A DNA stretch of 32,741 bases from the NCBI GenBank assembly GCA_017883165.1, contig JADGOC010000026.1, positions 1-32,741 on the forward strand. The letters are read 5' to 3'. This document shows positions 1 through 11,037 of the stretch, piece by piece. The position numbers and the translations under genes were made by a program. Each line of letters opens with the position of its first letter. The stretch's first letter is position 1. The stretch comes from Acidobacteriota bacterium. GTDB taxonomy: Bacteria; Acidobacteriota; Vicinamibacteria; Vicinamibacterales; CAVVIG01. The notes under the pieces were generated by a model. The model was not told the DNA's origin, searched no databases, and saw nothing but the letters and a program-made list of their open reading frames with translations.

Positions 1-19
1 GGCTCCGACAACGATTGCG

Positions 20-193
20 TCAGAAATTCTGAGCAATGGGTTGCCAGAAGACGTTGGTGATGGTGCTGCCGAGCGACGTCACGCCGGCGATCACGACGAT
101 GGCGATCAGCACGGCCAGAAGCCCGTACTCGAGCAAGTCCTGTCCGTCGTCGCGACGAACCAGGTGGCTGACGGCAGCGAGCACGCGTTTCAT
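20..193 (-). CDS. flp: Flp-family type IVb pilin (57 aa)
   Basis: Major pilin subunit of a Tad (tight adherence) system, expected to be cleaved by a TadV-type prepilin peptidase and polymerised at the inner membrane. The 57-residue length is normal for Flp. A basic N-terminus (MKRVLAAV, then LVRRDDG) is followed by the Flp processing motif G/QDLLEYG, with Glu at +5 and Tyr at +6 after the predicted cleavage Gly, and then one hydrophobic helix (LLAVLIAIVVIAGV). A GAGG Shine-Dalgarno-like sequence lies about 6 nt before the ATG. It is the second of two tandem minus-strand pilin genes and is separated from the first by a hairpin. It is too short for many gene callers. Identification is secure from the motif; which of the two copies is the major pilin cannot be told. 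Confidence 0.88.
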   Translation of the reverse strand: MKRVLAAVSHLVRRDDGQDLLEYGLLAVLIAIVVIAGVTSLGSTITNVFWQPIAQNF

Positions 194-215
194 GGAGACC
201 TCGCAGAATGTGATG

Positions 216-239
216 GGGGCGGGACGTGGGTCCCGCCCC
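216..239 (-). terminator. Strong inter-pilin hairpin (attenuator or partial terminator)
   Basis: A perfect inverted repeat with two 10-nt arms (GGGGCGGGAC at 216-225 and GTCCCGCCCC at 230-239) and a 4-nt loop. It lies between the two pilin genes, 20 nt after the stop of the upstream pilin and 22 nt before the start of the downstream one. In the direction of pilin transcription no U-tract follows it, so a strong intrinsic terminator is unlikely. An mRNA-stabilising or attenuating hairpin that sets the ratio of the two pilins is more plausible (inference). Confidence 0.55.
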
Positions 240-259
240 TTTGACGATCGCTAGCCTCC

Positions 260-433
260 CTACGTCGCCAACGCGGTTGCGATTCTCGAGAAGATCGAGT
301 TGACGTTGGTGCCCGCCGAGGTGATGGCGACAACGCAGACGAGCGCGATGAGCGCCACGAGCAGCGCGTATTCGAGCAGGTCCTGCCCTTCGTCGTGGCG
401 CGCCAGCGTGCGGAGATACGTAACCAGACTCAT
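260..433 (-). CDS. flp: Flp-family type IVb pilin (57 aa)
   Basis: Second Flp-type pilin, first in transcription order. The start is the ATG at 433, chosen because GGGAGGAAG lies just upstream and because it gives 57 residues, identical in length to its neighbour; a longer in-frame extension upstream lacks pilin features. The sequence shows a basic leader (TYLRTLARHDEG), the Flp motif G/QDLLEYALL with Glu at +5, and a single hydrophobic helix rich in Val, Ile, Ala and Leu. The C-terminal tail is short (TNVNSIFSRIATALAT). The two pilins share the ARHDEGQDLLEY/VRRDDGQDLLEY core but differ downstream, so they are old paralogues and not a fresh duplication. They probably form a Tad/Flp fibre together with the TadE/TadG-type proteins encoded at 8502-11037. 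Confidence 0.9.
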   Translation of the reverse strand: MSLVTYLRTLARHDEGQDLLEYALLVALIALVCVVAITSAGTNVNSIFSRIATALAT

Positions 434-847
434 GACTTCCTCCCGGCGCGCATCACCGCGCCATGTGCGTGTGCCAATTGCGGTCACGCGTCATCGCGTG
501 ATCGCGCGGCATCACCCACCATCGCAACGGCCGTACCACGACGCGCGACGCGCCATCGCCGCGCATCGGCAACTCGTTGCGCGCACGAGCGCTTACGACG
601 CGGCCGGTACGCGGCGCACCGGTGCCGGCGGCGGCGCGTCGTCACGCCGCGGGTCTGCACATTCGTAATGCCGCACGCACTTTTCGTGCGAACGAGCCGG
701 CTCGAAACGGCACACGCGACGACCGCATTTATGTGATCGTGGAAAAGCGCGAGCAAAAATGTCACCTCGCCGGCGCAATCGTGTCCAACGTCTTCAGGAA
801 CGGGATTTGCCATATCAACGGATGGCGTGATCTAAGAGGTGATGGTG
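434..847. other. Intergenic region between divergent pilin and membrane-protein genes
   Basis: This 414-nt region separates the minus-strand pilins from the plus-strand genes and must hold both promoters. I see no convincing ORF: the open frames here are overlapping and of low complexity. It holds an inverted repeat at 484-501 (listed separately), a short stem-loop at 676-690 (CGCAC, 5-nt loop, GTGCG), and an AT-richer patch near 725-765. A weak GG-N10-GC pattern at 740-755 is too degenerate to call a sigma-54 promoter. The Shine-Dalgarno of the next gene (AAGAGG, 834-839) closes the region. Confidence 0.5.
484..501. repeat. Inverted repeat upstream of the pilin genes
   Basis: TCACGCG (484-490), a TCAT spacer, then CGCGTGA (495-501) form a perfect 7-bp dyad. 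It lies about 50-70 nt upstream of the first pilin start on the minus strand, a position suited to an operator or activator site for the pilin promoter. That role is inferred; no regulator is encoded beside it except the degenerate receiver-domain protein at 1125-2216, which has no DNA-binding domain. Confidence 0.35.
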
Positions 848-2333: not shown

Positions 2334-4826
2334 ATGCAGAAATCGCCATCAGAGCAGGTCAGGCCTGGAGATCTCGTTCGCGTCCGCCGCCGCCGCTGGC
2401 GTGTCCTCGACGTGCGTGCACACGATACGTGTCAAGTGCTGACGCTTGCCGCCGTCGGCGCTTCCGAAGGCACGGCCAGCAACATCCAGCGTGTCATCGC
2501 TCCATTCGACACCATCGAGCGGATCGAACGGCCAACGCGGCTGCGCCTTGTCGCGCGCCGACGATGGCGGCGCGCCTGCCGCGCCCTCATCGCCGACCAC
2601 ACGCCGCCGGGCGCGCTGCGCAGCGGGCGCCGGGCGCGCATCGATCTGCTGCCACACCAGCTCGAGCCCGCGCTCGCCATCGTCCGCGGCCTCGGATCGC
2701 GGCTGCTCTTGGCGGACGATGTGGGGCTTGGGAAGACGATACAGGCGGGCCTCGTGTTGTCTGAGCTACGCGCGCGGGCGGCGATCGAGCGCGCGCTGAT
2801 CCTCACTCCGGCGGGCCTGCGCGAGCAATGGGTTGGCGAGCTCGCGGAGCGCTTCGCCGTCACGGCCGCCATCGCCGACGCGGGCGAGATGCGCCGGCGC
2901 GTGGCGGCGCTGCCGGTCGGCGTCAACCCGTGGTCGACAATCGACGTGGCGATTGCGTCGTTCGATTACGTCAAGCGGCCCGACATTTTCGCGGCGGCCG
3001 CCGCCTGCCGATGGGATGTGTTGATCGTCGACGAAGCGCACGGCGTCGCCGGCGACAGCGGCCGCCACGAGGCGATTGCCGCCCTCGCCGCTAGCGCGCC
3101 CTACGTGCTGCTGCTCACGGCCACGCCACACTGCGGCGATCGACGCGCGTTTCTGTCGCTGTGCCGCCTGGGGCAACATGGCGATCGGTTACTGCTGTTC
3201 CGGCGCACACGCCTCGACGTCAGGCTCGGCGCCGGCCGGCGCGTGCGGCGGCTGCTCGTTCGGCCGAGCGCCGCCGAGCTGCAAATGCACGCGCTCGTGA
3301 CGCGCTTCAGCCGCGCAGTCCTCCAGGACAAGCGAACAGATCGGCTTCAACAGGACGCGTCGAGGTGGCTCGCCATCGCGGTGCTCAACAAACGCGCGCT
3401 GTCGAGCGCGCGGTCGCTCGCCGAAACGGTCGAGCGGCGTCTGGCGGCGCTGGAGTCGAGCGCCCCGCGTCCTTCCCCTGCCGCAATCGACCCCTGGCAG
3501 CCGGCGTTGCCCCTTCCGGATCCCGACGACGAAACAAACGATGCCGATCGAGCGCCCGATCTGGCCGGTCTGGCGCTTGGGGATCCCGCGCGCGAGCACG
3601 CGATGCTCCGCGAGCTCGCCGCATCCGCGCGGCAGGCCGCGCAGCACGAAACCAAAATCGCGGCGCTCATCAGATTTCTCGATCGTGTCAATGAGCCGGT
3701 CATCGTCTTCACCGAGTACCGGGACACTCTCGTGCTGCTGCGCGATGCCATCCGCGCACCAGCCGCCGTGTTGCACGGCGGTCTCGATCGCGCCGAGCGC
3801 ATCTCGGCGCTCGGCGATTTCATCGACGGCCGCCGCGCCATTCTGCTCGCCACTGATGCCGCAGGCGAGGGGCTCAACCTCCATCACAACTGCCGCATCG
3901 TCGTCACTCTCGAGCTGCCGTGGAATCCGATGCGCCTGGAACAGCGAATTGGACGCGTCGATCGCATCGGCCAGCGCCGTACGGTTCATGCCCTGCATCT
4001 CATCGCGCGCGACACAGGAGAGACGCGCATTCTCGATCGGTTGCGGATGCGGATCGCCCAGGCGCGGGCCGACGTCGGCGCTGCCGATCCGCTCGGATCT
4101 CACGACGACGATCTCGCGACCGCGAGGCTGGTGATCGACGGCGCGGCGGACGACGGCGGCGCGCCCTGCGTTCTATCAGAGCCGGATCCTCACGCTCCGA
4201 TTCCAACCGTCTTGCGCGGCGAGGCCGACGCCGAGTCGGCACGCCTCGCGCTGGCGCGCCGCTTCGCGATCGGCCGTCCGTCAAGCTCGCAAGAGGACCA
4301 GCTTGTCGGATGGCTCGAATCCGATGGCGCGTGGCTGTCGTTTTCGCGCGCATCGCGCATGCTCGCGCGAACACGCATCCTGATGATTCTGAAAGTGGCG
4401 TATGAGGACGCAACCGGCCGGCCCATTGAATCGATGCTCGTCCCGGTGACGATTGCGTCCGCCCGGACGCAGCCGCCCTTCGAGAACAGACGATGCGTCG
4501 ATGATGTCGTGAAGTCGGCGATGGCCAACCTGGGCCCAAGGATCGAGCTTGCGGTGGGGTCCTGGCGAGATGCGGCGCTGGCATGCACGCGCGCATTCTT
4601 CGACACGCGGCTGACGAGGGAGCGCGCCATCGCCGCGATCGACATCACATCGCCGACGGCTTTTCAGCCAGGCCTCTTCGACCATCGGTCCACACATCAG
4701 CATCTGACGATGCAAGGTGTCGTTGCCGATGCGGGCGCCGAAATGTCGCGCCGCCTCATCGCGCTCGAGCAGGCGTCGTGCGTTCTGGCACGGCCTGCGC
4801 AGCTTCTCCTCGTGCTCGCTCCCTGA
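2334..4826 (+). CDS. SNF2-family DEAD/DEAH helicase, DrmD-like
   Basis: An 830-residue superfamily 2 helicase/translocase. Visible motifs: Walker A DDVGLGKT (128-135), motif Ia LILTPAGLREQW (~155-166), DEAH (233-236), motif III LLTATPH (260-266), motif V ATDAAGEGLNL (506-516) and motif VI RIGRVDRIGQRR (538-549). The N-terminal ~100 residues are Arg-rich and the C-terminal ~250 carry no domain I know. This arrangement fits SNF2-like translocases found beside adenine methylases in defence loci, most closely DrmD of class 1 DISARM. It probably moves along or remodels DNA using ATP. The methyltransferase gene starts 2 nt after its stop, so they form one translational unit. No nuclease motif is visible. 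The ATG at 2334 has no good Shine-Dalgarno; a start slightly downstream is possible. Confidence 0.85.
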   Translation: MQKSPSEQVRPGDLVRVRRRRWRVLDVRAHDTCQVLTLAAVGASEGTASNIQRVIAPFDTIERIERPTRLRLVARRRWRRACRALIADHTPPGALRSGRRARIDLLPHQLEPALAIVRGLGSRLLLADDVGLGKTIQAGLVLSELRARAAIERALILTPAGLREQWVGELAERFAVTAAIADAGEMRRRVAALPVGVNPWSTIDVAIASFDYVKRPDIFAAAAACRWDVLIVDEAHGVAGDSGRHEAIAALAASAPYVLLLTATPHCGDRRAFLSLCRLGQHGDRLLLFRRTRLDVRLGAGRRVRRLLVRPSAAELQMHALVTRFSRAVLQDKRTDRLQQDASRWLAIAVLNKRALSSARSLAETVERRLAALESSAPRPSPAAIDPWQPALPLPDPDDETNDADRAPDLAGLALGDPAREHAMLRELAASARQAAQHETKIAALIRFLDRVNEPVIVFTEYRDTLVLLRDAIRAPAAVLHGGLDRAERISALGDFIDGRRAILLATDAAGEGLNLHHNCRIVVTLELPWNPMRLEQRIGRVDRIGQRRTVHALHLIARDTGETRILDRLRMRIAQARADVGAADPLGSHDDDLATARLVIDGAADDGGAPCVLSEPDPHAPIPTVLRGEADAESARLALARRFAIGRPSSSQEDQLVGWLESDGAWLSFSRASRMLARTRILMILKVAYEDATGRPIESMLVPVTIASARTQPPFENRRCVDDVVKSAMANLGPRIELAVGSWRDAALACTRAFFDTRLTRERAIAAIDITSPTAFQPGLFDHRSTHQHLTMQGVVADAGAEMSRRLIALEQASCVLARPAQLLLVLAP

Positions 4827-4828
4827 TC

Positions 4829-7800
4829 ATGCTGCCAGGGTTCGGCGGACATCTCGTTTCAGAATTCTTCATCGAATCGCGTCTGGCCGCTGGCGCGGGC
4901 GCTGGAGAGAGTGACGAATTCGACACCGTCCGCGCCGAGGCGGTCCGCCGGCAGCTGGCGCGGTGGCGGAGAGGATCCCGCTCGCTTGGCCCGGCTTCGA
5001 GCGTGCGCGCGCTGCTCGAGAGCGGCGCGGCGCCGCTGGTCGACGCGCTCGGCTTTGACCCGCCAGCTTTTATCAATCAAATCGAACCGTCGCTTGCTGT
5101 CGCGAGTCTCCGTGCCGGCCCACACATCGTCGTGCTCGTCGTGGCACCGTGGGGCGAGCGTCTTGATCGGCTGTGGCGGCCCGCGGTCACTCATGCCATC
5201 CACCGAGGCGCCTCGTGGTGCCTCGCCTTCAACGGCACGCACCTTCGCAGCATCTCGGCCGCGCGGCCATATGCGCGGCGCTACTTCGAGTTCGACGTCG
5301 ATCTGGCGATCGACGATCCCCGTACGTTTTCCGCGCTCTGGTGGCTGAATCGCGCCGACCGTGTCGAGCGTCTTGATTCCATCGTCGACGCGTCGGAGCG
5401 GCACGCATCGGGCGTGTGCCGATCGCTCAGAGACGGTGTCCTCGCCGCGTCGGCCGACGTCCTCGGCGCGCTCATTGGACGCGCCGTGCGCGGACCGGCC
5501 AACGATGCCGGGATCCCCAACGGTTCGCCGGATGCGTTCGAGCAGGCGCTGACGATCGTCTACCGCCTGCTCTTTCTCCTGTTTGCCGAAGCGCGCGGAC
5601 TCGTCCCGCTCTGGCATCCCGTCTATCGCGAGAGCTACAGCATCGACGCGGTGCGGGCCGCAGCCGAACACCCGCACGGCGCGCCGGGCCTCTGGGACGC
5701 TCTGCGAGCCATCGCCAGGTTGGCGCATGCCGGCTGCCGCGCGGGCGATTTGCGAGTGACGCCGTTCAACGGCCGCCTGTTCGCGCCGTCGCGCACACCG
5801 CTCGCCGACCGGCGCGATCTCGATGACCTAGCGGCAAGACGCGCCGTGCTGGCGCTCTCGACTCGCGCGACGCCGGACAGAGCCGGCCGCGAGCGCATCG
5901 CCTACCGCGATCTCGGCGTTGAGCAACTGGGTGCGGTGTACGAAACACTGCTGGACTACGAACCGCGCGTCGCCGCTCCCCCGCCGCGGACCCCCAGGGG
6001 CCGACGCCACGAGTCGCGGCCACTCGTCTCGCTCGAGCCAGGCTCGGGCGTCCGCAAGGCGACCGGTACGTTCTACACGCCGCAGCCAATCGCCGAGTAC
6101 TTGATTCGCCGAACGATCGGTCCACTCGTGCGCGACGCGTCACCCGACCGCATTCTCGGCCTGCGCATCGTTGACCCGGCGATGGGGAGCGGCGCGTTTC
6201 TCGTCGCCGCCTGCCGGTTTCTCGCCGCGGCATACGAGACCGCGCTCGTCAACCACGGCGGCTACCACGGCAGCGATTTCGGTGAGCCCGAACGGACGGC
6301 GATCCGACGCACGATCGCCGAACGCTGCCTGTACGGCGTGGATCTGAATCCGATGGCGGTACAGCTTGCGCGTCTGTCCATCTGGCTGGCGACGCTCGCC
6401 GCCGATCGGCCGCTGACGTTTCTCGATCACCGCTTGCAGGTCGGCGACAGCCTCCTCGGCGCGTGGCTCAGCCAGATGCACCAGCCACCGGCCGTTCGCC
6501 CACGAAAACGGCGCGCGGATCCGTCCTCGCTCCCACTCTTCAATGGTGACGAGATGCGGCGTGCCCTCGCGGACGCGTTGCCGGTTCGCTTCACGCTCGA
6601 GTCGGTGCCGGACGACACGCTCGACCAGGTGCGGGCGAAGGAGCGCGCGCTCGCGGGTTTGAACCGGCGCGACGGCGCGTTGGCGAAGTGGAAGCGCGTC
6701 TGCGACCTCTGGTGCGCGTCGTGGTTTTCACAAAGCGGTGAATTCCGGGTACCATGCTCGGCTTTCAGTGCGCTTGCCGACGCGATTCTCGCCGGCCATG
6801 GCGCGCTGTCGCGCGCGACGGCTGATGCGTATCTCCGACACGCGGACGCGATCGCCCGGTCGCGACGCGTCTTTCACTGGGAGCTGGAGTTCCCTGAGGT
6901 GTTCTTCGCGTCCAACGGCGCGCGACTGCCCATGGGTGGATTCGACGCGGTGATCGGCAACCCGCCATGGGACATGGTCCGCGCGGACGCCGGATCCGCC
7001 AATGCCCGCGCGCGATCGCGAGACGACATCGCGCAGTTCTTGCGATTCACGCGCGACTCGGGCGCTTACGACTCGCAATCGGACGGCCACGCCAACCGGT
7101 ACCAGCTGTTTCTCGAACGGGCGATGTCGCTCACGCGAACCGGTGGACGCCTGGGCCTCGTGCTCCCGTCGGGACTCGCAACCGATCACGGCAGCTCGCG
7201 CCTGCGATCGCGCCTGCTGGGCCGCTGTGATGTCGACGCCCTCGTCGGCTTCGACAACCGGCGCGGCGTCTTTCCGATCCATCGCAGCGTCCGCTTCCTG
7301 CTGCTGACGGCAACCGCCGGATCGTCCACACGCGCGATCGCGTGCCGGCTTGGCGAACACGATCCTGCGGTACTCGAAGGGATCGGCGACGAGCCGGCGG
7401 ACACGAATCCGTCATTCCCGCTTCGGATCACGACGGCGCTGCTCGAGCGGATCTCCGGAGAGGAGCTCACGATCCCCGATTTCCGCAGCGCCGTTGACCT
7501 GGCGATCGCCGAACGCGCTGCGGCCCTCTTCGCGCCGCTCGGCAGCCACGCCGGCTGGGCCGCGCATTTCGGCCGCGAGCTGAATGCGACCGACGACCGC
7601 GCACATCTTCACGATGCCGGCGGCGGGCTGCCGATCATCGAAGGCAAGCAGGTCGAGCCGTTTCGCGTCGCGGTCGCTTCATCTCGCCACGCCGTCGCCG
7701 CCGGCGACGCGCGCCGACTCCTCAAGTCGAGCCGCCACGAACGCCCGCGGCTCGGCTATCGCGATGTGGCCAGCGCGACAAACCGCCTCACCCTGATCGC

Positions 7801-8203
7801 GGCGATCCTTCCGGCGGGATGCGTCTCGACGCACACGGTGTTCTGCTTGCGGACGCCGCTGCCGCTCCCCGCGCAGCACTTCCTGTGCGGAGTCTTCAAC
7901 AGCTTCGTCGTGAACTATCTGGTACGGCTCCGCGTGACGACGCACGTCACGACAGCGATGGTGGAGCGGCTGCCGATCCCGCGGCGCGATGACGGTCCGC
8001 GCGCGTTCCGCGAGATCGCGGCGCTTTCCCGCCTTCTTGCCCGCCGGCCGGATCCGGCCGCATCGGCGCGCCTGCAGGCGCTCGTCGCCGGGTTCTATCA
8101 GCTGACCGTAGAGGAGTTCGAGCACATCCTCGGGACGTTTCCGCTGATCCCGCGGGAAGAGCGGGACGCGGCGCTCGAGCGATATACGAAGACACAGAGA
8201 TGA
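4829..8203 (+). CDS. Eco57I-type adenine-N6 DNA methyltransferase, DrmMI/type IIG-like
   Basis: A 1124-residue DNA methylase; the start is the ATG 2 nt after the helicase stop (the frame stays open upstream, but that part overlaps the helicase). Residues 1-180 resemble the N-terminal nuclease-like fold of type I/IIG enzymes (VVLVVAPWGERLDRLW, then WCLAFNGTHLR and PYARRYFEFD), but without a recognisable E-x-K active site. Residues ~410-820 are the methylase: motif X-like TGTFYTPQPIAEYL (412-425), AdoMet motif I VDPAMGSGAFLV (448-459), YGVDLNPMAVQLA (502-514), and catalytic motif IV NPPW (711-714), which indicates N6-adenine methylation. Residues ~930-1060 look like a TaqI-type target-recognition domain (IIEGKQVEPFRV, VERLPIP). 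Together with the helicase it forms a two-gene DISARM-like or type ISP-like module. A modification-only or regulatory function cannot be excluded. Confidence 0.85.
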   Translation: MLPGFGGHLVSEFFIESRLAAGAGAGESDEFDTVRAEAVRRQLARWRRGSRSLGPASSVRALLESGAAPLVDALGFDPPAFINQIEPSLAVASLRAGPHIVVLVVAPWGERLDRLWRPAVTHAIHRGASWCLAFNGTHLRSISAARPYARRYFEFDVDLAIDDPRTFSALWWLNRADRVERLDSIVDASERHASGVCRSLRDGVLAASADVLGALIGRAVRGPANDAGIPNGSPDAFEQALTIVYRLLFLLFAEARGLVPLWHPVYRESYSIDAVRAAAEHPHGAPGLWDALRAIARLAHAGCRAGDLRVTPFNGRLFAPSRTPLADRRDLDDLAARRAVLALSTRATPDRAGRERIAYRDLGVEQLGAVYETLLDYEPRVAAPPPRTPRGRRHESRPLVSLEPGSGVRKATGTFYTPQPIAEYLIRRTIGPLVRDASPDRILGLRIVDPAMGSGAFLVAACRFLAAAYETALVNHGGYHGSDFGEPERTAIRRTIAERCLYGVDLNPMAVQLARLSIWLATLAADRPLTFLDHRLQVGDSLLGAWLSQMHQPPAVRPRKRRADPSSLPLFNGDEMRRALADALPVRFTLESVPDDTLDQVRAKERALAGLNRRDGALAKWKRVCDLWCASWFSQSGEFRVPCSAFSALADAILAGHGALSRATADAYLRHADAIARSRRVFHWELEFPEVFFASNGARLPMGGFDAVIGNPPWDMVRADAGSANARARSRDDIAQFLRFTRDSGAYDSQSDGHANRYQLFLERAMSLTRTGGRLGLVLPSGLATDHGSSRLRSRLLGRCDVDALVGFDNRRGVFPIHRSVRFLLLTATAGSSTRAIACRLGEHDPAVLEGIGDEPADTNPSFPLRITTALLERISGEELTIPDFRSAVDLAIAERAAALFAPLGSHAGWAAHFGRELNATDDRAHLHDAGGGLPIIEGKQVEPFRVAVASSRHAVAAGDARRLLKSSRHERPRLGYRDVASATNRLTLIAAILPAGCVSTHTVFCLRTPLPLPAQHFLCGVFNSFVVNYLVRLRVTTHVTTAMVERLPIPRRDDGPRAFREIAALSRLLARRPDPAASARLQALVAGFYQLTVEEFEHILGTFPLIPREERDAALERYTKTQR

Positions 8204-8501
8204 ATTCGCGGATGCGACGTCGATGTCTGTACGGTAACCAGAATGGCACTTTCTTCCGAAGCATCCACGATGGGCCAAACGGACGCGACGCCACACTCCC
8301 CCGGCGCCAGATATTTCCGCGGTCGATGTCTTTCCTAAGTAACGCCTCGTCAGTGCTTTAGAAATCGTGGCACTCGGCGTCGCGTAGCGGGCCCATACGA
8401 ATCCGTGTGCTGGTTACGGACTTTGTAATTGAAGAGGCGCTGGCACAACGGGTGCACCGCATACAGCATATTTTCGGCGGTCCGTTGGATAGGAACAACG
8501 T
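8204..8501. other. Intergenic region between methyltransferase and tadE
   Basis: This 298-nt stretch is visibly less GC-rich than its flanks and has no supported gene. It marks the right junction of the helicase/methylase pair with the pilus genes. It contains the sigma-54-like element at 8441-8456 and, about 20 nt upstream of that, a short dyad (TCCGT, 9-nt gap, ACGGA at 8402-8420). I found no inverted or direct repeats typical of an insertion-sequence end and no tRNA fragment. Confidence 0.5.
8441..8456 (+). promoter_or_regulatory. Sigma-54-like -24/-12 promoter for the tadE-tadG operon
   Basis: TGGCAC at 8441-8446 and GTGCA at 8452-8456 match the -24/-12 consensus (TGGCACG-N4-TTGCA) with the required spacing of 10 nt between the invariant GG and GC. 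Two consensus positions differ. Transcription would start near 8468, giving a leader of about 34 nt before the tadE ATG, whose AGGA Shine-Dalgarno lies at 8491-8494. Being the only such match in the region, it is credible but unproven. Confidence 0.45.
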
Positions 8502-8996
8502 ATGACACGTCATGTCCGACATCGGCTCTTCAGACGGCTCCTCGACACCGCAGGGTCCAACCTGCTCGAAGCGGCGATCATCACGCCGCTGCTCCTGCTG
8601 CTGACGCTCGCCGTCGTGGACTTCGCGTCGCTCTTTTACGTGTACCTCGCGCTCGAGAACGGCGTCAGCCAGGCCACGCGCTACGGCGTCACCGGCAATT
8701 TGATGGACGACCCGCTGCATCCCGGCACGCCCCTTTCGCGCGAGGACTCGATCAAGCTCGCCATGCGCCAGGCCACGCCGAGCCTCACGATTGCCGACAG
8801 CGCCTTCACCTTCAGCCATCTCCCGGCCGGCTCCGGCGCCTGGGCCGGCGGGACGGGCGGGCCGACCGACATCGAGAAAGTCCAGATCGACTACACGTGG
8901 ACGCTCTTGACGCCGCTCGTCAGCCCGTTTTTCAACGGCGGGCAGATCCACTTCACCGTCGATTCCGCGATGAAGAACGAAGGCAGATTCCAATGA
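8502..8996 (+). CDS. tadE: TadE-like pseudopilin
   Basis: A 164-residue minor pseudopilin of the Tad apparatus. The N-terminal segment carries the TadE signature: a basic stretch (RHRLFRRLLD), then G/SNLLEAAIITP with Glu at +5 of the predicted prepilin-peptidase site and the Pro-containing helix start, followed by one transmembrane helix (LLLLLTLAVVDFASLFYVYL). The ~110-residue remainder would lie outside the inner membrane and is rich in Gly, Thr and Asp (PAGSGAWAGGTGG). The ATG has AGGA 7 nt upstream. The stop overlaps the next start as ATGA (8993-8996), so translation is coupled to the second TadE-like protein. It is first in the tadE-tadE-tadG operon behind the sigma-54-like promoter. Confidence 0.85.
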   Translation: MTRHVRHRLFRRLLDTAGSNLLEAAIITPLLLLLTLAVVDFASLFYVYLALENGVSQATRYGVTGNLMDDPLHPGTPLSREDSIKLAMRQATPSLTIADSAFTFSHLPAGSGAWAGGTGGPTDIEKVQIDYTWTLLTPLVSPFFNGGQIHFTVDSAMKNEGRFQ

Positions 8997-9571
8997 AGAA
9001 GGGTCTCTCCAGCTCCAGCGGCCAGAGCATCGTCGAATTCGCGCTGATTCTGCCGCTCGTCATGGTGGTGCTGCTCGGCGTCATCGAGTTGAGCTACGCG
9101 CTGCTCGACGAGCACGTCGTCACCAAGCTGACGCGGGAGGGCTCGAACCTGATTTCCCGCGATACGAGCCTTCAGGACGCCGCCACGGCGATGCGGAGCA
9201 TGAGCACGCGCCCGGTGAATTTCGACACCAGCTCGAAAGTGATCTTCTCGGTGGTCAGACGGGTCGCGACGACAGGAGCGAGCAACTTCAACAGGGACGT
9301 CCTGTACCAACGCTACGAGTACGGCGCGCTCTCGGCGACGAGCCAGTTGACGACGCGCGGGGCCGGTTCGTTTGGACCCGCTCCCGACTATCAAGCCGCC
9401 AACTCGGACAACGACACGAGCCTCCAGCTCACGAATCTGCCGTCCAACCTGCTGATCACGGGCGGCATGCTGTACGTCACCGAGATCTACACCACGCACA
9501 CGCTCATCACGCCGTTCGACCGGTTCGGAATCTCCGTGCCGAGCACACTCTATTCGATTGCCTATTTCTGA
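8993..9571 (+). CDS. Second TadE-like pseudopilin (TadF-type)
   Basis: A 192-residue protein starting at the ATG within the ATGA overlap; the frame remains open upstream but that part is antisense or overlapping and is not used. The N-terminus is MKKGLSSSSG/QSIVEFALILP, a textbook TadE/TadF processing motif with Glu at +5, and then a transmembrane helix (LVMVVLLGVIELSYALL). The exported domain (~45-192) has polar Ser/Thr/Asn-rich segments and a hydrophobic C-terminus. Two TadE-like proteins followed by a TadG-like protein is the usual TadE/TadF/TadG set. Calling this copy TadF rests on order only. It is 14 nt upstream of the VWA gene. Confidence 0.83.
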   Translation: MKKGLSSSSGQSIVEFALILPLVMVVLLGVIELSYALLDEHVVTKLTREGSNLISRDTSLQDAATAMRSMSTRPVNFDTSSKVIFSVVRRVATTGASNFNRDVLYQRYEYGALSATSQLTTRGAGSFGPAPDYQAANSDNDTSLQLTNLPSNLLITGGMLYVTEIYTTHTLITPFDRFGISVPSTLYSIAYF

Positions 9572-9585
9572 AAAGGCTGACCGAC

Positions 9586-11037
9586 ATGAAGAGACACACA
9601 TCCGATCGCGCCAGACAAGACGGTTTCGCGCTTGTGTATATGGCGGTGACGCTGACCGGCTTGCTGATCTTCACCGGGCTGGCCGTCGACAGCGGCCGAG
9701 CCTATGTGGTGAAAGCGCAGTTGACCAAGGCGGTCGACGGCGCGGCGCTCGGAGCCGCGCGCAATCTCAACAGCGGCGATCCCAGGGGCGAAGCGACGCG
9801 GATCTTCCAGGCCAACTTCCCTGCCGGGTACATGGGCACGTCGTCGGCAACCGACCCGACGTCCGACCCTGGTTTTTTCTCGCTGGCCACTGATGCCGGC
9901 ACCGGCGTGAACACCGTCACCGTCACCGCCGCGGCGGTGCTGCCGACGACGTTCATGAAGCTCGTCAATTTCAATCAGGTGACGGTGGGCAGCTCCGGGC
10001 AGGCCACGCGGCGGATGGTGGACTTGTCGCTGGTGCTGGACGTGTCGAGTTCGATCGGATCGCAGTGGACCACCGTCCGAGACGCCGTCAGAGAGTTCGT
10101 GAATTCCTTCGATCAACTCCACGATCGCATGGCTCTACTGACGTTCAGCAACGGCGCGCAAGTGTTGGATGCGATGCCGGCAGGCCGCGGGTTCGACAAG
10201 ACGAGAATCATGAGCGACGTGCCCAATACGCTGCCCGGCGGCAGCACGAACATGGTGGAGGGCTTGTATCGAGGGTGGGACGAGCTGCGTTCCGTCCCGC
10301 TCGGCACACAGTCTGGCGTGCGTGTGATCGTGCTGTTCACCGACGGCGCCTCCAACGGCGTGCCGGGCAACTGGGATGGCGCGGCGTTCGCCAAGTCGAT
10401 CAGGACAGCCGATTTCCCGAAGAACCTTCCTGATCCGGACGGCCAGACCTGGATGGCCCCGGCGTTCGGCGGCCTCTTCAATACAGCGACAGGCGCGCAG
10501 GCTGGAGTCGTGAACGCAACCGGCGACGCGACGAGCAAGCCAGCCATGAAATCCGTCGTGCTTCCGTCTCCGTACCAGTTCATGCCGCCGACGACCTGGC
10601 ACACGCAGAGTCGCAGCGCCGGCATCCCGACAACGTTCCCATTCCAGACCAACGGCTTGAATGTGAATGGCGTGGCGCAGAGCACCCAGCGTCCCATGAT
10701 CCCGGATCCCGTGACCGGGAAGTACAAATCGACCTTGTGGAACATCAACAACGCCGCGCGGAATGTCCTCGAAATCATCGCAGACCAGGCGCGGAACGAC
10801 AACGGCGACTACCGCATCCGCGTCTACACGATCGGCATGGGCGACCTGGTGCGCTATGTCCTCGGCACGATGCCGGAAAGGCCAGAGGACATTCTCAAAC
10901 GCATCTCGAACGACGCGTCATCGCCGGACTTCAACAGCGCCCAACTCGAAGGCAGGTATTTCTTCGCGCCGACGGCGGCCGACGTGTCGCCGGCGTTTCA
11001 GGGCATCCAGAATCAGATTCTGCGGTTGAGCAGGTAA
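9586..11037 (+). CDS. tadG: TadG-like pilus assembly protein with VWA domain
   Basis: A 483-residue protein. Residues 12-40 form the TadG N-terminal transmembrane helix (GFALVYMAVTLTGLLIFTGLAVDSGRAY, broken here for description), followed by the typical VKAQLTKAVDGAALGAAR segment. From about residue 145 there is a von Willebrand factor A domain: the MIDAS motif DVSSS (152-156, D-x-S-x-S), a downstream GGSTNM Thr (~222) and VIVLFTDGASN with the third metal-site Asp. A ~100-residue insertion between the DG motif and the domain end (IRTADFPKN to NINNAARN) is rich in Pro, Thr and Asn. Such proteins are thought to anchor or mature the Tad fibre at the envelope. The gene ends 25 nt inside the 3' end of the convergent GT87 gene. 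Confidence 0.85.
   Translation: MKRHTSDRARQDGFALVYMAVTLTGLLIFTGLAVDSGRAYVVKAQLTKAVDGAALGAARNLNSGDPRGEATRIFQANFPAGYMGTSSATDPTSDPGFFSLATDAGTGVNTVTVTAAAVLPTTFMKLVNFNQVTVGSSGQATRRMVDLSLVLDVSSSIGSQWTTVRDAVREFVNSFDQLHDRMALLTFSNGAQVLDAMPAGRGFDKTRIMSDVPNTLPGGSTNMVEGLYRGWDELRSVPLGTQSGVRVIVLFTDGASNGVPGNWDGAAFAKSIRTADFPKNLPDPDGQTWMAPAFGGLFNTATGAQAGVVNATGDATSKPAMKSVVLPSPYQFMPPTTWHTQSRSAGIPTTFPFQTNGLNVNGVAQSTQRPMIPDPVTGKYKSTLWNINNAARNVLEIIADQARNDNGDYRIRVYTIGMGDLVRYVLGTMPERPEDILKRISNDASSPDFNSAQLEGRYFFAPTAADVSPAFQGIQNQILRLSR

What the first reader, a model, noticed from the sequence alone, without database searches (positions are those of the whole stretch)
2334..8203. Two-gene helicase/methylase module resembling DISARM accessory genes but without the core or a nuclease
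A SNF2 helicase with complete motifs is coupled (2-nt gap) to an Eco57I-type adenine methylase with NPPW. In class 1 DISARM, drmD and drmMI accompany drmA, drmB and drmC. Here none of the core genes is present within the ~8 kb on the right side, and no PLD, HNH, GIY-YIG or PD-(D/E)xK nuclease motif is evident. It could be a minimal stand-alone defence or epigenetic system, or a remnant.
Basis: partly seen in the sequence, partly recalled or inferred. Interest (0 to 1): 0.6.

Follow-up and report, generated by a model that had tools for sequence, protein, structure and literature searches.

The report
Order-wide helicase–DNA methylase pair lacking effector
Two coupled genes, a DNA motor and a DNA-tagging enzyme related to those of the anti-virus systems ARMADA and DISARM, have been kept together at a stable chromosomal place through most of one bacterial order without the attack component, so they look like a defence module that lost its weapon and became a resident DNA-marking device.

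Summary
The pair is real and intact: a RapA/BrxHII/DrmD-like Swi2/Snf2 motor (2334-4826) and, after 2 nt, an Eco57I/PglX-like adenine methylase with NPPW (4829-8203). No DISARM core exists anywhere in this genome: its only DUF1998/MZB protein is a repair-type helicase on another contig. It is not a remnant. The helicase is found in about 100 of 162 genomes of the order (Vicinamibacterales, Acidobacteriota). The pair is single-copy, in shared synteny, under purifying selection (dN/dS 0.18-0.34), and its divergence tracks rpoB (Mantel r 0.82). The nearest relatives elsewhere are not DISARM but ARMADA (ArmA-ArmB-ArmC; Bell et al. 2025 preprint): 22 of 26 long outside loci carry the DruE/ArmC-like third gene, while 0 of 69 Vicinamibacterales stretches do. 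The methylase's N-terminal domain looks like a PD-(D/E)xK fold without catalytic residues. Best reading: an ARMADA-related motor plus methylase without effector, now a resident, vertically inherited helicase-assisted m6A marker; stand-alone defence is the main rival. A GxxExxY (PD-(D/E)xK) gene follows the pair in 9 of about 55 loci, not here. Function is untested and no methylome was available. New variant of a known kind.

The parts
2334..4826 (+). Swi2/Snf2 DNA translocase, BrxHII/RapA/DrmD/ArmA-like, 830 aa
   Evidence: PADLOC DrmD 2e-83; Pfam SNF2-rel_dom, Helicase_C; AlphaFold model pLDDT 80, best PDB match RapA E 2e-27
2370..2522 (+). N-terminal small beta domain (residues 13-63), probably the Tudor-like domain described for BrxHII/RapA
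   Evidence: strands 14-17, 20-29, 34-40, 51-56 in the model; BrxHII Tudor described in PMC12839542; assignment inferred
2724..2738 (+). Walker A (GxGKT) of the helicase
   Evidence: G131, G133, K134, T135 invariant in A2
3030..3041 (+). DEAH box of the helicase
   Evidence: D233-H236 invariant
4209..4823 (+). C-terminal module (residues 626-830) with a conserved LFD motif; encoded as a separate ORF in some same-family relatives
   Evidence: disordered linker 587-624 before it; separate homologous ORFs in L063-L072
4829..8203 (+). Eco57I/PglX-type N6-adenine DNA methyltransferase, DrmMI/ArmB-like, 1124 aa
   Evidence: PADLOC DrmMI 2.6e-106; Pfam Eco57I 6.8e-22; model pLDDT 84.7 matches CamA (Z 25) and BrxX (Z 23.7)
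4997..5296 (+). N-terminal alpha-beta-beta-beta-alpha-beta domain (residues 57-156), PD-(D/E)xK-like topology without catalytic E-x-K
   Evidence: secondary structure of the model; residues at the expected sites are not acidic/lysine in the order nor in ARMADA relatives
6173..6199 (+). SAM-binding motif I (DPAMGSGAF)
   Evidence: DP[AS]MGSGAF in 53 of 61 sequences, near variants in the rest
6959..6970 (+). catalytic motif IV NPPW
   Evidence: 61 of 61 in the order
7316..7978 (+). putative target recognition domain (residues 830-1050)
   Evidence: aligned with the part of CamA and BrxX that follows the methylase domain; diverges in step with the rest of the protein in the order

Best explanation
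A two-gene module related to the ArmA-ArmB part of ARMADA: a RapA/BrxHII-type Swi2/Snf2 double-strand DNA translocase and a PglX-like adenine methylase, without the YprA/ArmC helicase-nuclease. I propose it was fixed early in Vicinamibacterales and kept as a resident device that places an N6-methyladenine mark on a fixed target sequence, with the motor (through its C-terminal module) activating the methylase or clearing proteins from its sites. SHOWN: homology, intact catalytic motifs, absence of ArmC and of the DISARM core, vertical inheritance at a shared locus, purifying selection. INFERRED: that ArmC was lost rather than never present, that the two proteins act together, that methylation is the output, that the role is marking rather than restriction.
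For: Homology and architecture. Strong methylase matches in 29 of 42 sampled genomes of the order and none in the same class outside it; helicase in about 100 of 162; helicase immediately upstream in every locus long enough to show it. Shared neighbours (ntrC-type regulator, queF, M14 peptidase, panE, tauE, NrfD/Mo oxidoreductase) across families. Distances of methylase and helicase follow rpoB, Mantel r 0.82, p 1e-4; each other 0.93. One clade, next to actinomycete ARMADA proteins. 0/69 stretches with ArmC against 22/26 outside. dN/dS 0.18-0.34. No sign of target-domain swapping, whereas close ARMADA relatives show it (e.g. core 88%, N-terminus 91%, target domain 50%). No relative over 36% identity on viral contigs. 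Closest structure CamA, an orphan regulatory methylase. BrxX alone does not methylate and needs partner proteins (PMC11842806), which makes a partner-dependent methylase plausible.
Against: Not universal: about 60 of 162 genomes lack it, including whole families, and G293 shows a clean empty site, so it is dispensable. Both proteins evolve faster than their neighbours (38-46% identity where the Mo oxidoreductase next door is 75%), as defence genes often do. The target-domain test depends on where the domain is cut (p 0.0003 to 0.09) and for residues 830-1050 is not significant against the catalytic core. No methylome or target motif. A GxxExxY nuclease-superfamily gene follows the pair in 9 of about 55 loci. 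A trans partner cannot be excluded: a YprA/MrfA-type helicase is present in nearly all genomes of the order.
Confidence: 0.5

Rival explanations
1. Minimal stand-alone anti-phage defence: the methylase recognises unmodified sites and the motor blocks or disrupts phage replication without cutting DNA.
For: Homologues act in BREX, DISARM and ARMADA; in ARMADA type II the Walker motifs of ArmA and the NPPW of ArmB are needed for defence (PMC12458937). Fast sequence evolution and patchy loss.
Against: [quoted passage not shown] Vertical inheritance at a housekeeping locus and no sign of mobility are unusual for a defence system.
Confidence: 0.27
2. Effector in trans: the pair is the sensing and marking half of a restriction system whose nuclease lies elsewhere (the near-ubiquitous YprA/MrfA-type helicase, GxxExxY proteins, or a sporadic DruE/ArmC-like system).
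For: A YprA/MrfA-like helicase with MZB domain exists in this genome and nearly all of the order; a GxxExxY gene with PD...ExK is the next gene in 9 of about 55 loci; one GxxExxY copy lies elsewhere in the window's genome.
Against: The YprA-type gene is equally present in genomes without the pair and looks like a repair helicase (TIGR03817-like, WHD_HRQ1); strong ArmC-like genes are sporadic and unlinked; 11 of 30 genomes lack any GxxExxY.
Confidence: 0.13
3. Decaying remnant of a DISARM/ARMADA system without function.
For: Core genes missing; G385 holds only a broken 3' piece of the methylase; G229 has a split helicase ORF.
Against: Intact NPPW in 61 of 61 methylases, dN/dS 0.18-0.34, retained across about ten families.
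Confidence: 0.05
4. Split type ISP/IIG restriction-modification enzyme whose nuclease is dead, now a plain protective methylase.
For: Fold shared with LlaGI/LlaBIII, MmeI, DrdV; PD-(D/E)xK-like N-terminal domain lacks catalytic residues.
Against: Sequence relatives with this gene pair carry ArmC, not a fused type ISP polypeptide; catalytic residues are already absent in the ARMADA relatives.
Confidence: 0.05

Closest known systems
ARMADA type I (Bell et al. 2025 preprint, PMC12458937): ArmA BrxHII/RapA-like helicase, ArmB PglX-like methylase, ArmC YprA helicase-nuclease
   Same: Helicase-methylase order and coupling, best sequence relatives of both proteins outside the order (methylase 32-34% in Streptomyces, Nocardia, Verrucosispora, Actinomadura), N-terminal nuclease-like domain without catalytic residues
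   Different: No ArmC in any Vicinamibacterales locus; shorter helicase (830 vs ~985 aa) and methylase (1124 vs ~1280 aa); fixed chromosomal locus and vertical inheritance; no target-domain swapping seen
DISARM class 1 (drmD, drmMI with drmA, drmB, drmC)
   Same: Best named profile hits are DrmD and DrmMI
   Different: No drmA/B/C in the locus or, by DUF1998/MZB, in the genome; score far under the NCBIfam DrmD equivalog cut-off
BREX (PglX/BrxX; BrxHII of type 3)
   Same: Fold of the methylase (BrxX, Z 23.7) and of the motor (RapA-like with a Tudor-like N-terminus)
   Different: No PglZ in the genome
CamA, orphan adenine methylase of Clostridioides difficile
   Same: Closest solved structure over the methylase and target domains (Z 25); an orphan methylase with an epigenetic role in sporulation (PMC13395437 abstract)
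   Different: CamA is half the size and, to my knowledge, has no partner motor

Membership tests
DISARM class 1 | drmA and drmB (DUF1998/MZB) in the locus or genome | tested here: not met
   Only MZB protein in the genome is the repair-type helicase at G000:C26; the DrmA-labelled PADLOC profile hits only the pair itself and two weak helicases
DISARM class 1 | drmC (phospholipase D-type) in the operon | tested here: not met
   PLD proteins of this genome lie only on other contigs, C178 and C273; no PLD in the window's first ten genes
DISARM class 1 | DrmD helicase at equivalog level | tested here: not met
   NF038317 317 bits, cut-off 610
ARMADA | ArmA-like BrxHII/RapA helicase coupled to ArmB-like PglX methylase | tested here: met
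ARMADA | YprA-family helicase (ArmC) in the operon, the protein by which ARMADA was defined | tested here: not met
   0 of 69 stretches; none in own genome except the repair-type helicase
ARMADA | anti-phage activity | not testable with these tools
   needs an experiment
BREX | PglZ | tested here: not met
   PF08665 absent from the genome
Type IIG / ISP restriction-modification | active nuclease domain fused to the methylase | tested here: not met
   N-terminal domain lacks catalytic residues across the order
Orphan (solitary) adenine methyltransferase | methylase active without a cognate nuclease | not testable with these tools
   no cognate nuclease found at this locus; activity needs a methylome

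The most novel reading that the evidence does not exclude
An order-wide, vertically inherited epigenetic system in which a Swi2/Snf2 remodeller-type motor is the obligate partner of an adenine methylase: a bacterial parallel to remodeller-assisted DNA methylation, formed by taming a defence operon that lost its effector.
Probability: 0.35. Interest if true: 0.75.

Novelty: new variant of a known kind. Interest (0 to 1): 0.5.

Why it matters
ARMADA was defined through its YprA helicase, so a form without it would be missed by a YprA-based search. If the pair is an active marker, it shows a defence operon being domesticated into a chromosomal methylation system across an order, and gives a simple two-protein setting in which to ask how Snf2-type motors control PglX-like methylases, which in BREX are inactive alone.

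Tried and rejected
A first rpoB comparison used wrong reading frames and was redone. PADLOC's 'DrmA' profile PDLC02572 hits general helicases (13 of 14 control genomes) and cannot be read as evidence for DrmA. No conserved third gene was found next to the pair except GxxExxY in a minority. QueF upstream in several loci was considered as a sign of a 7-deazaguanine (Dpd) link and set aside: DpdE hits are weaker than DrmD and no queF was seen next to the pair in the window. Plasmid records hold only distant methylases (the best about 26-32% identity). No paper on Luteitalea methylation is in the library. The helicase structural search lists many chromatin remodellers after RapA; that reflects the shared Swi2/Snf2 motor, not function. 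The PD-(D/E)xK reading of the N-terminal domain rests on topology; it was not folded or searched alone.

Full report
Observation. The window holds two coupled genes exactly where reported: a helicase at 2334-4826 and a methylase at 4829-8203. Pfam finds SNF2-rel_dom, Helicase_C, Eco57I and N6_Mtase; PADLOC's best names are DrmD and DrmMI, followed by BrxHI/II and type IIG. The window is one whole contig (C186) of a 4.24-Mb, 334-contig genome; neighbours are an Flp pilin, TadE, TadG, GT87 and a Mo oxidoreductase operon, not a defence island.

Absence of the core. In the same genome the only protein with a DUF1998/MZB domain is an ~815-aa helicase on C26 with a HRQ1 winged helix, scoring best with TIGR03817; it also occurs in relatives without the pair. 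There is no PglZ, and PLD proteins lie on other contigs. So no DISARM, ARMADA or BREX core was found in a genome estimated 100% complete.

Distribution. In an even sample of the phylum, 29 of 42 genomes of the same order have a strong methylase match (E below 1e-160), none of the four genomes of other orders in the class, and elsewhere only weaker matches to other methylases. In the order the helicase is found in 103 of 162 genomes; three of these, in family f6 at E 1e-41 to 1e-51, are probably other helicases.

Fixed locus and vertical inheritance. The helicase precedes the methylase in every locus long enough to tell. Recurrent neighbours are an ntrC-type regulator, queF, an M14 peptidase, panE, an amidohydrolase, tauE and the NrfD/Mo oxidoreductase pair. 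In G293, which lacks the pair, M14 peptidase and panE are adjacent with about 125 bp between them and no remnant. Pairwise distances of methylase and of helicase follow rpoB (Mantel r 0.82 each, p 1e-4) and each other (0.93). dN/dS is 0.18-0.24 for the methylase and 0.24-0.34 for the helicase. G385 keeps only a broken end of the methylase, so loss does happen.

Closest relatives. The methylases of the order form one clade (support 100), next to proteins of Streptomyces, Nocardia, Verrucosispora and Actinomadura (midpoint root, for drawing only, so loss of ArmC as against never having had it is inferred). In those and most other outside loci the pair is next to a third gene of about 1640-1830 aa that hits DruE profiles, with DEAD, Helicase_C and MZB domains and, in Streptomyces, a DUF559-type nuclease end. 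This is the gene set of ARMADA (PMC12458937). 22 of 26 outside loci of at least 14 kb have it; 0 of 69 Vicinamibacterales stretches do. Some genomes of the order carry a separate, unlinked DruE/ArmC-like gene (roughly 15-20 of 162).

Anatomy. The methylase model (pLDDT 84.7) matches CamA (Z 25), LlaGI (Z 23.8) and BrxX (Z 23.7). Residues 57-156 have PD-(D/E)xK-like topology, but the expected acidic and lysine residues are missing across the 61 sequences of the order and also in ARMADA relatives; the domain assignment rests on topology and alignment, not on a separate fold search. The helicase model (pLDDT 80) is closest to RapA, with a small N-terminal beta domain like the Tudor domain described for BrxHII (PMC12839542). 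A disordered linker (587-624) precedes a C-terminal module; in several same-family relatives this module is a separate ORF between motor and methylase, which suggests that it is a functional unit.

Target domain. Among close ARMADA relatives the putative target domain can be far more diverged than the rest (core 88%, N-terminus 91%, target domain 50%), as expected if specificity is swapped. Among 61 Vicinamibacterales sequences no such case is seen. With disjoint pairs the difference from the N-terminal part is significant for residues 830-1050 (p 0.01) and 901-1050 (p 0.0003) but not for 830-1000 (p 0.09), and not against the core for 830-1050. I treat it as only suggestive of a fixed target sequence.

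Mechanism. BrxX alone does not methylate and needs partners (PMC11842806). With ArmC and PglZ absent, the co-inherited motor is the obvious candidate activator. I therefore think most likely that the motor engages DNA, activates the methylase or clears its path, and a fixed adenine motif is marked. Stand-alone defence is the chief rival, since both proteins evolve fast and are lost patchily, but in ARMADA type II removal of any gene abolished protection.

A minority feature. A GxxExxY protein gene (PF13366, PD-(D/E)xK superfamily, D...ExK present) matches from about 58 nt before to 84 nt after the methylase stop in 9 of about 55 distinct loci in two families, not in the window. With none to eight copies per genome, this adjacency is more than chance, though shared descent may explain part of it.

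Noticed in passing
L036, L041, L046, L047, L052, L064, L065, L070, L072, directly downstream of the methylase: GxxExxY (PDDEXK_3, PF13366) gene as the next gene in the operon in a minority of relatives; a possible accessory nuclease.
   Followed up: partly
L063, L064, L065, L066, L070, L072, between helicase and methylase: In a subclade of the window's family the helicase C-terminal module with its QPGLFDRR motif is a separate ORF of about 200 aa.
   Followed up: partly
window 1-450 and 8429-11037: Flp pilin genes to the left and TadE/TadG-VWA genes to the right: in this genome the pair sits inside a Tad pilus locus.
   Followed up: no
L182 (G116), L184 (G514), L188 (G441): DruE/ArmC-like genes in other genomes of the order, some with their own helicase or methylase, unlinked to the resident pair; G116 holds both.
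   Followed up: partly
L067, L085, L098, L091: Public bins titled Acidimicrobiia or Gemmatimonadaceae carry the Vicinamibacterales pair and look misnamed.
   Followed up: no
L037:3697-4056, L041, L044 and others: queF (7-deazaguanine/queuosine pathway) is a frequent upstream neighbour of the pair; probably only shared synteny.
   Followed up: no
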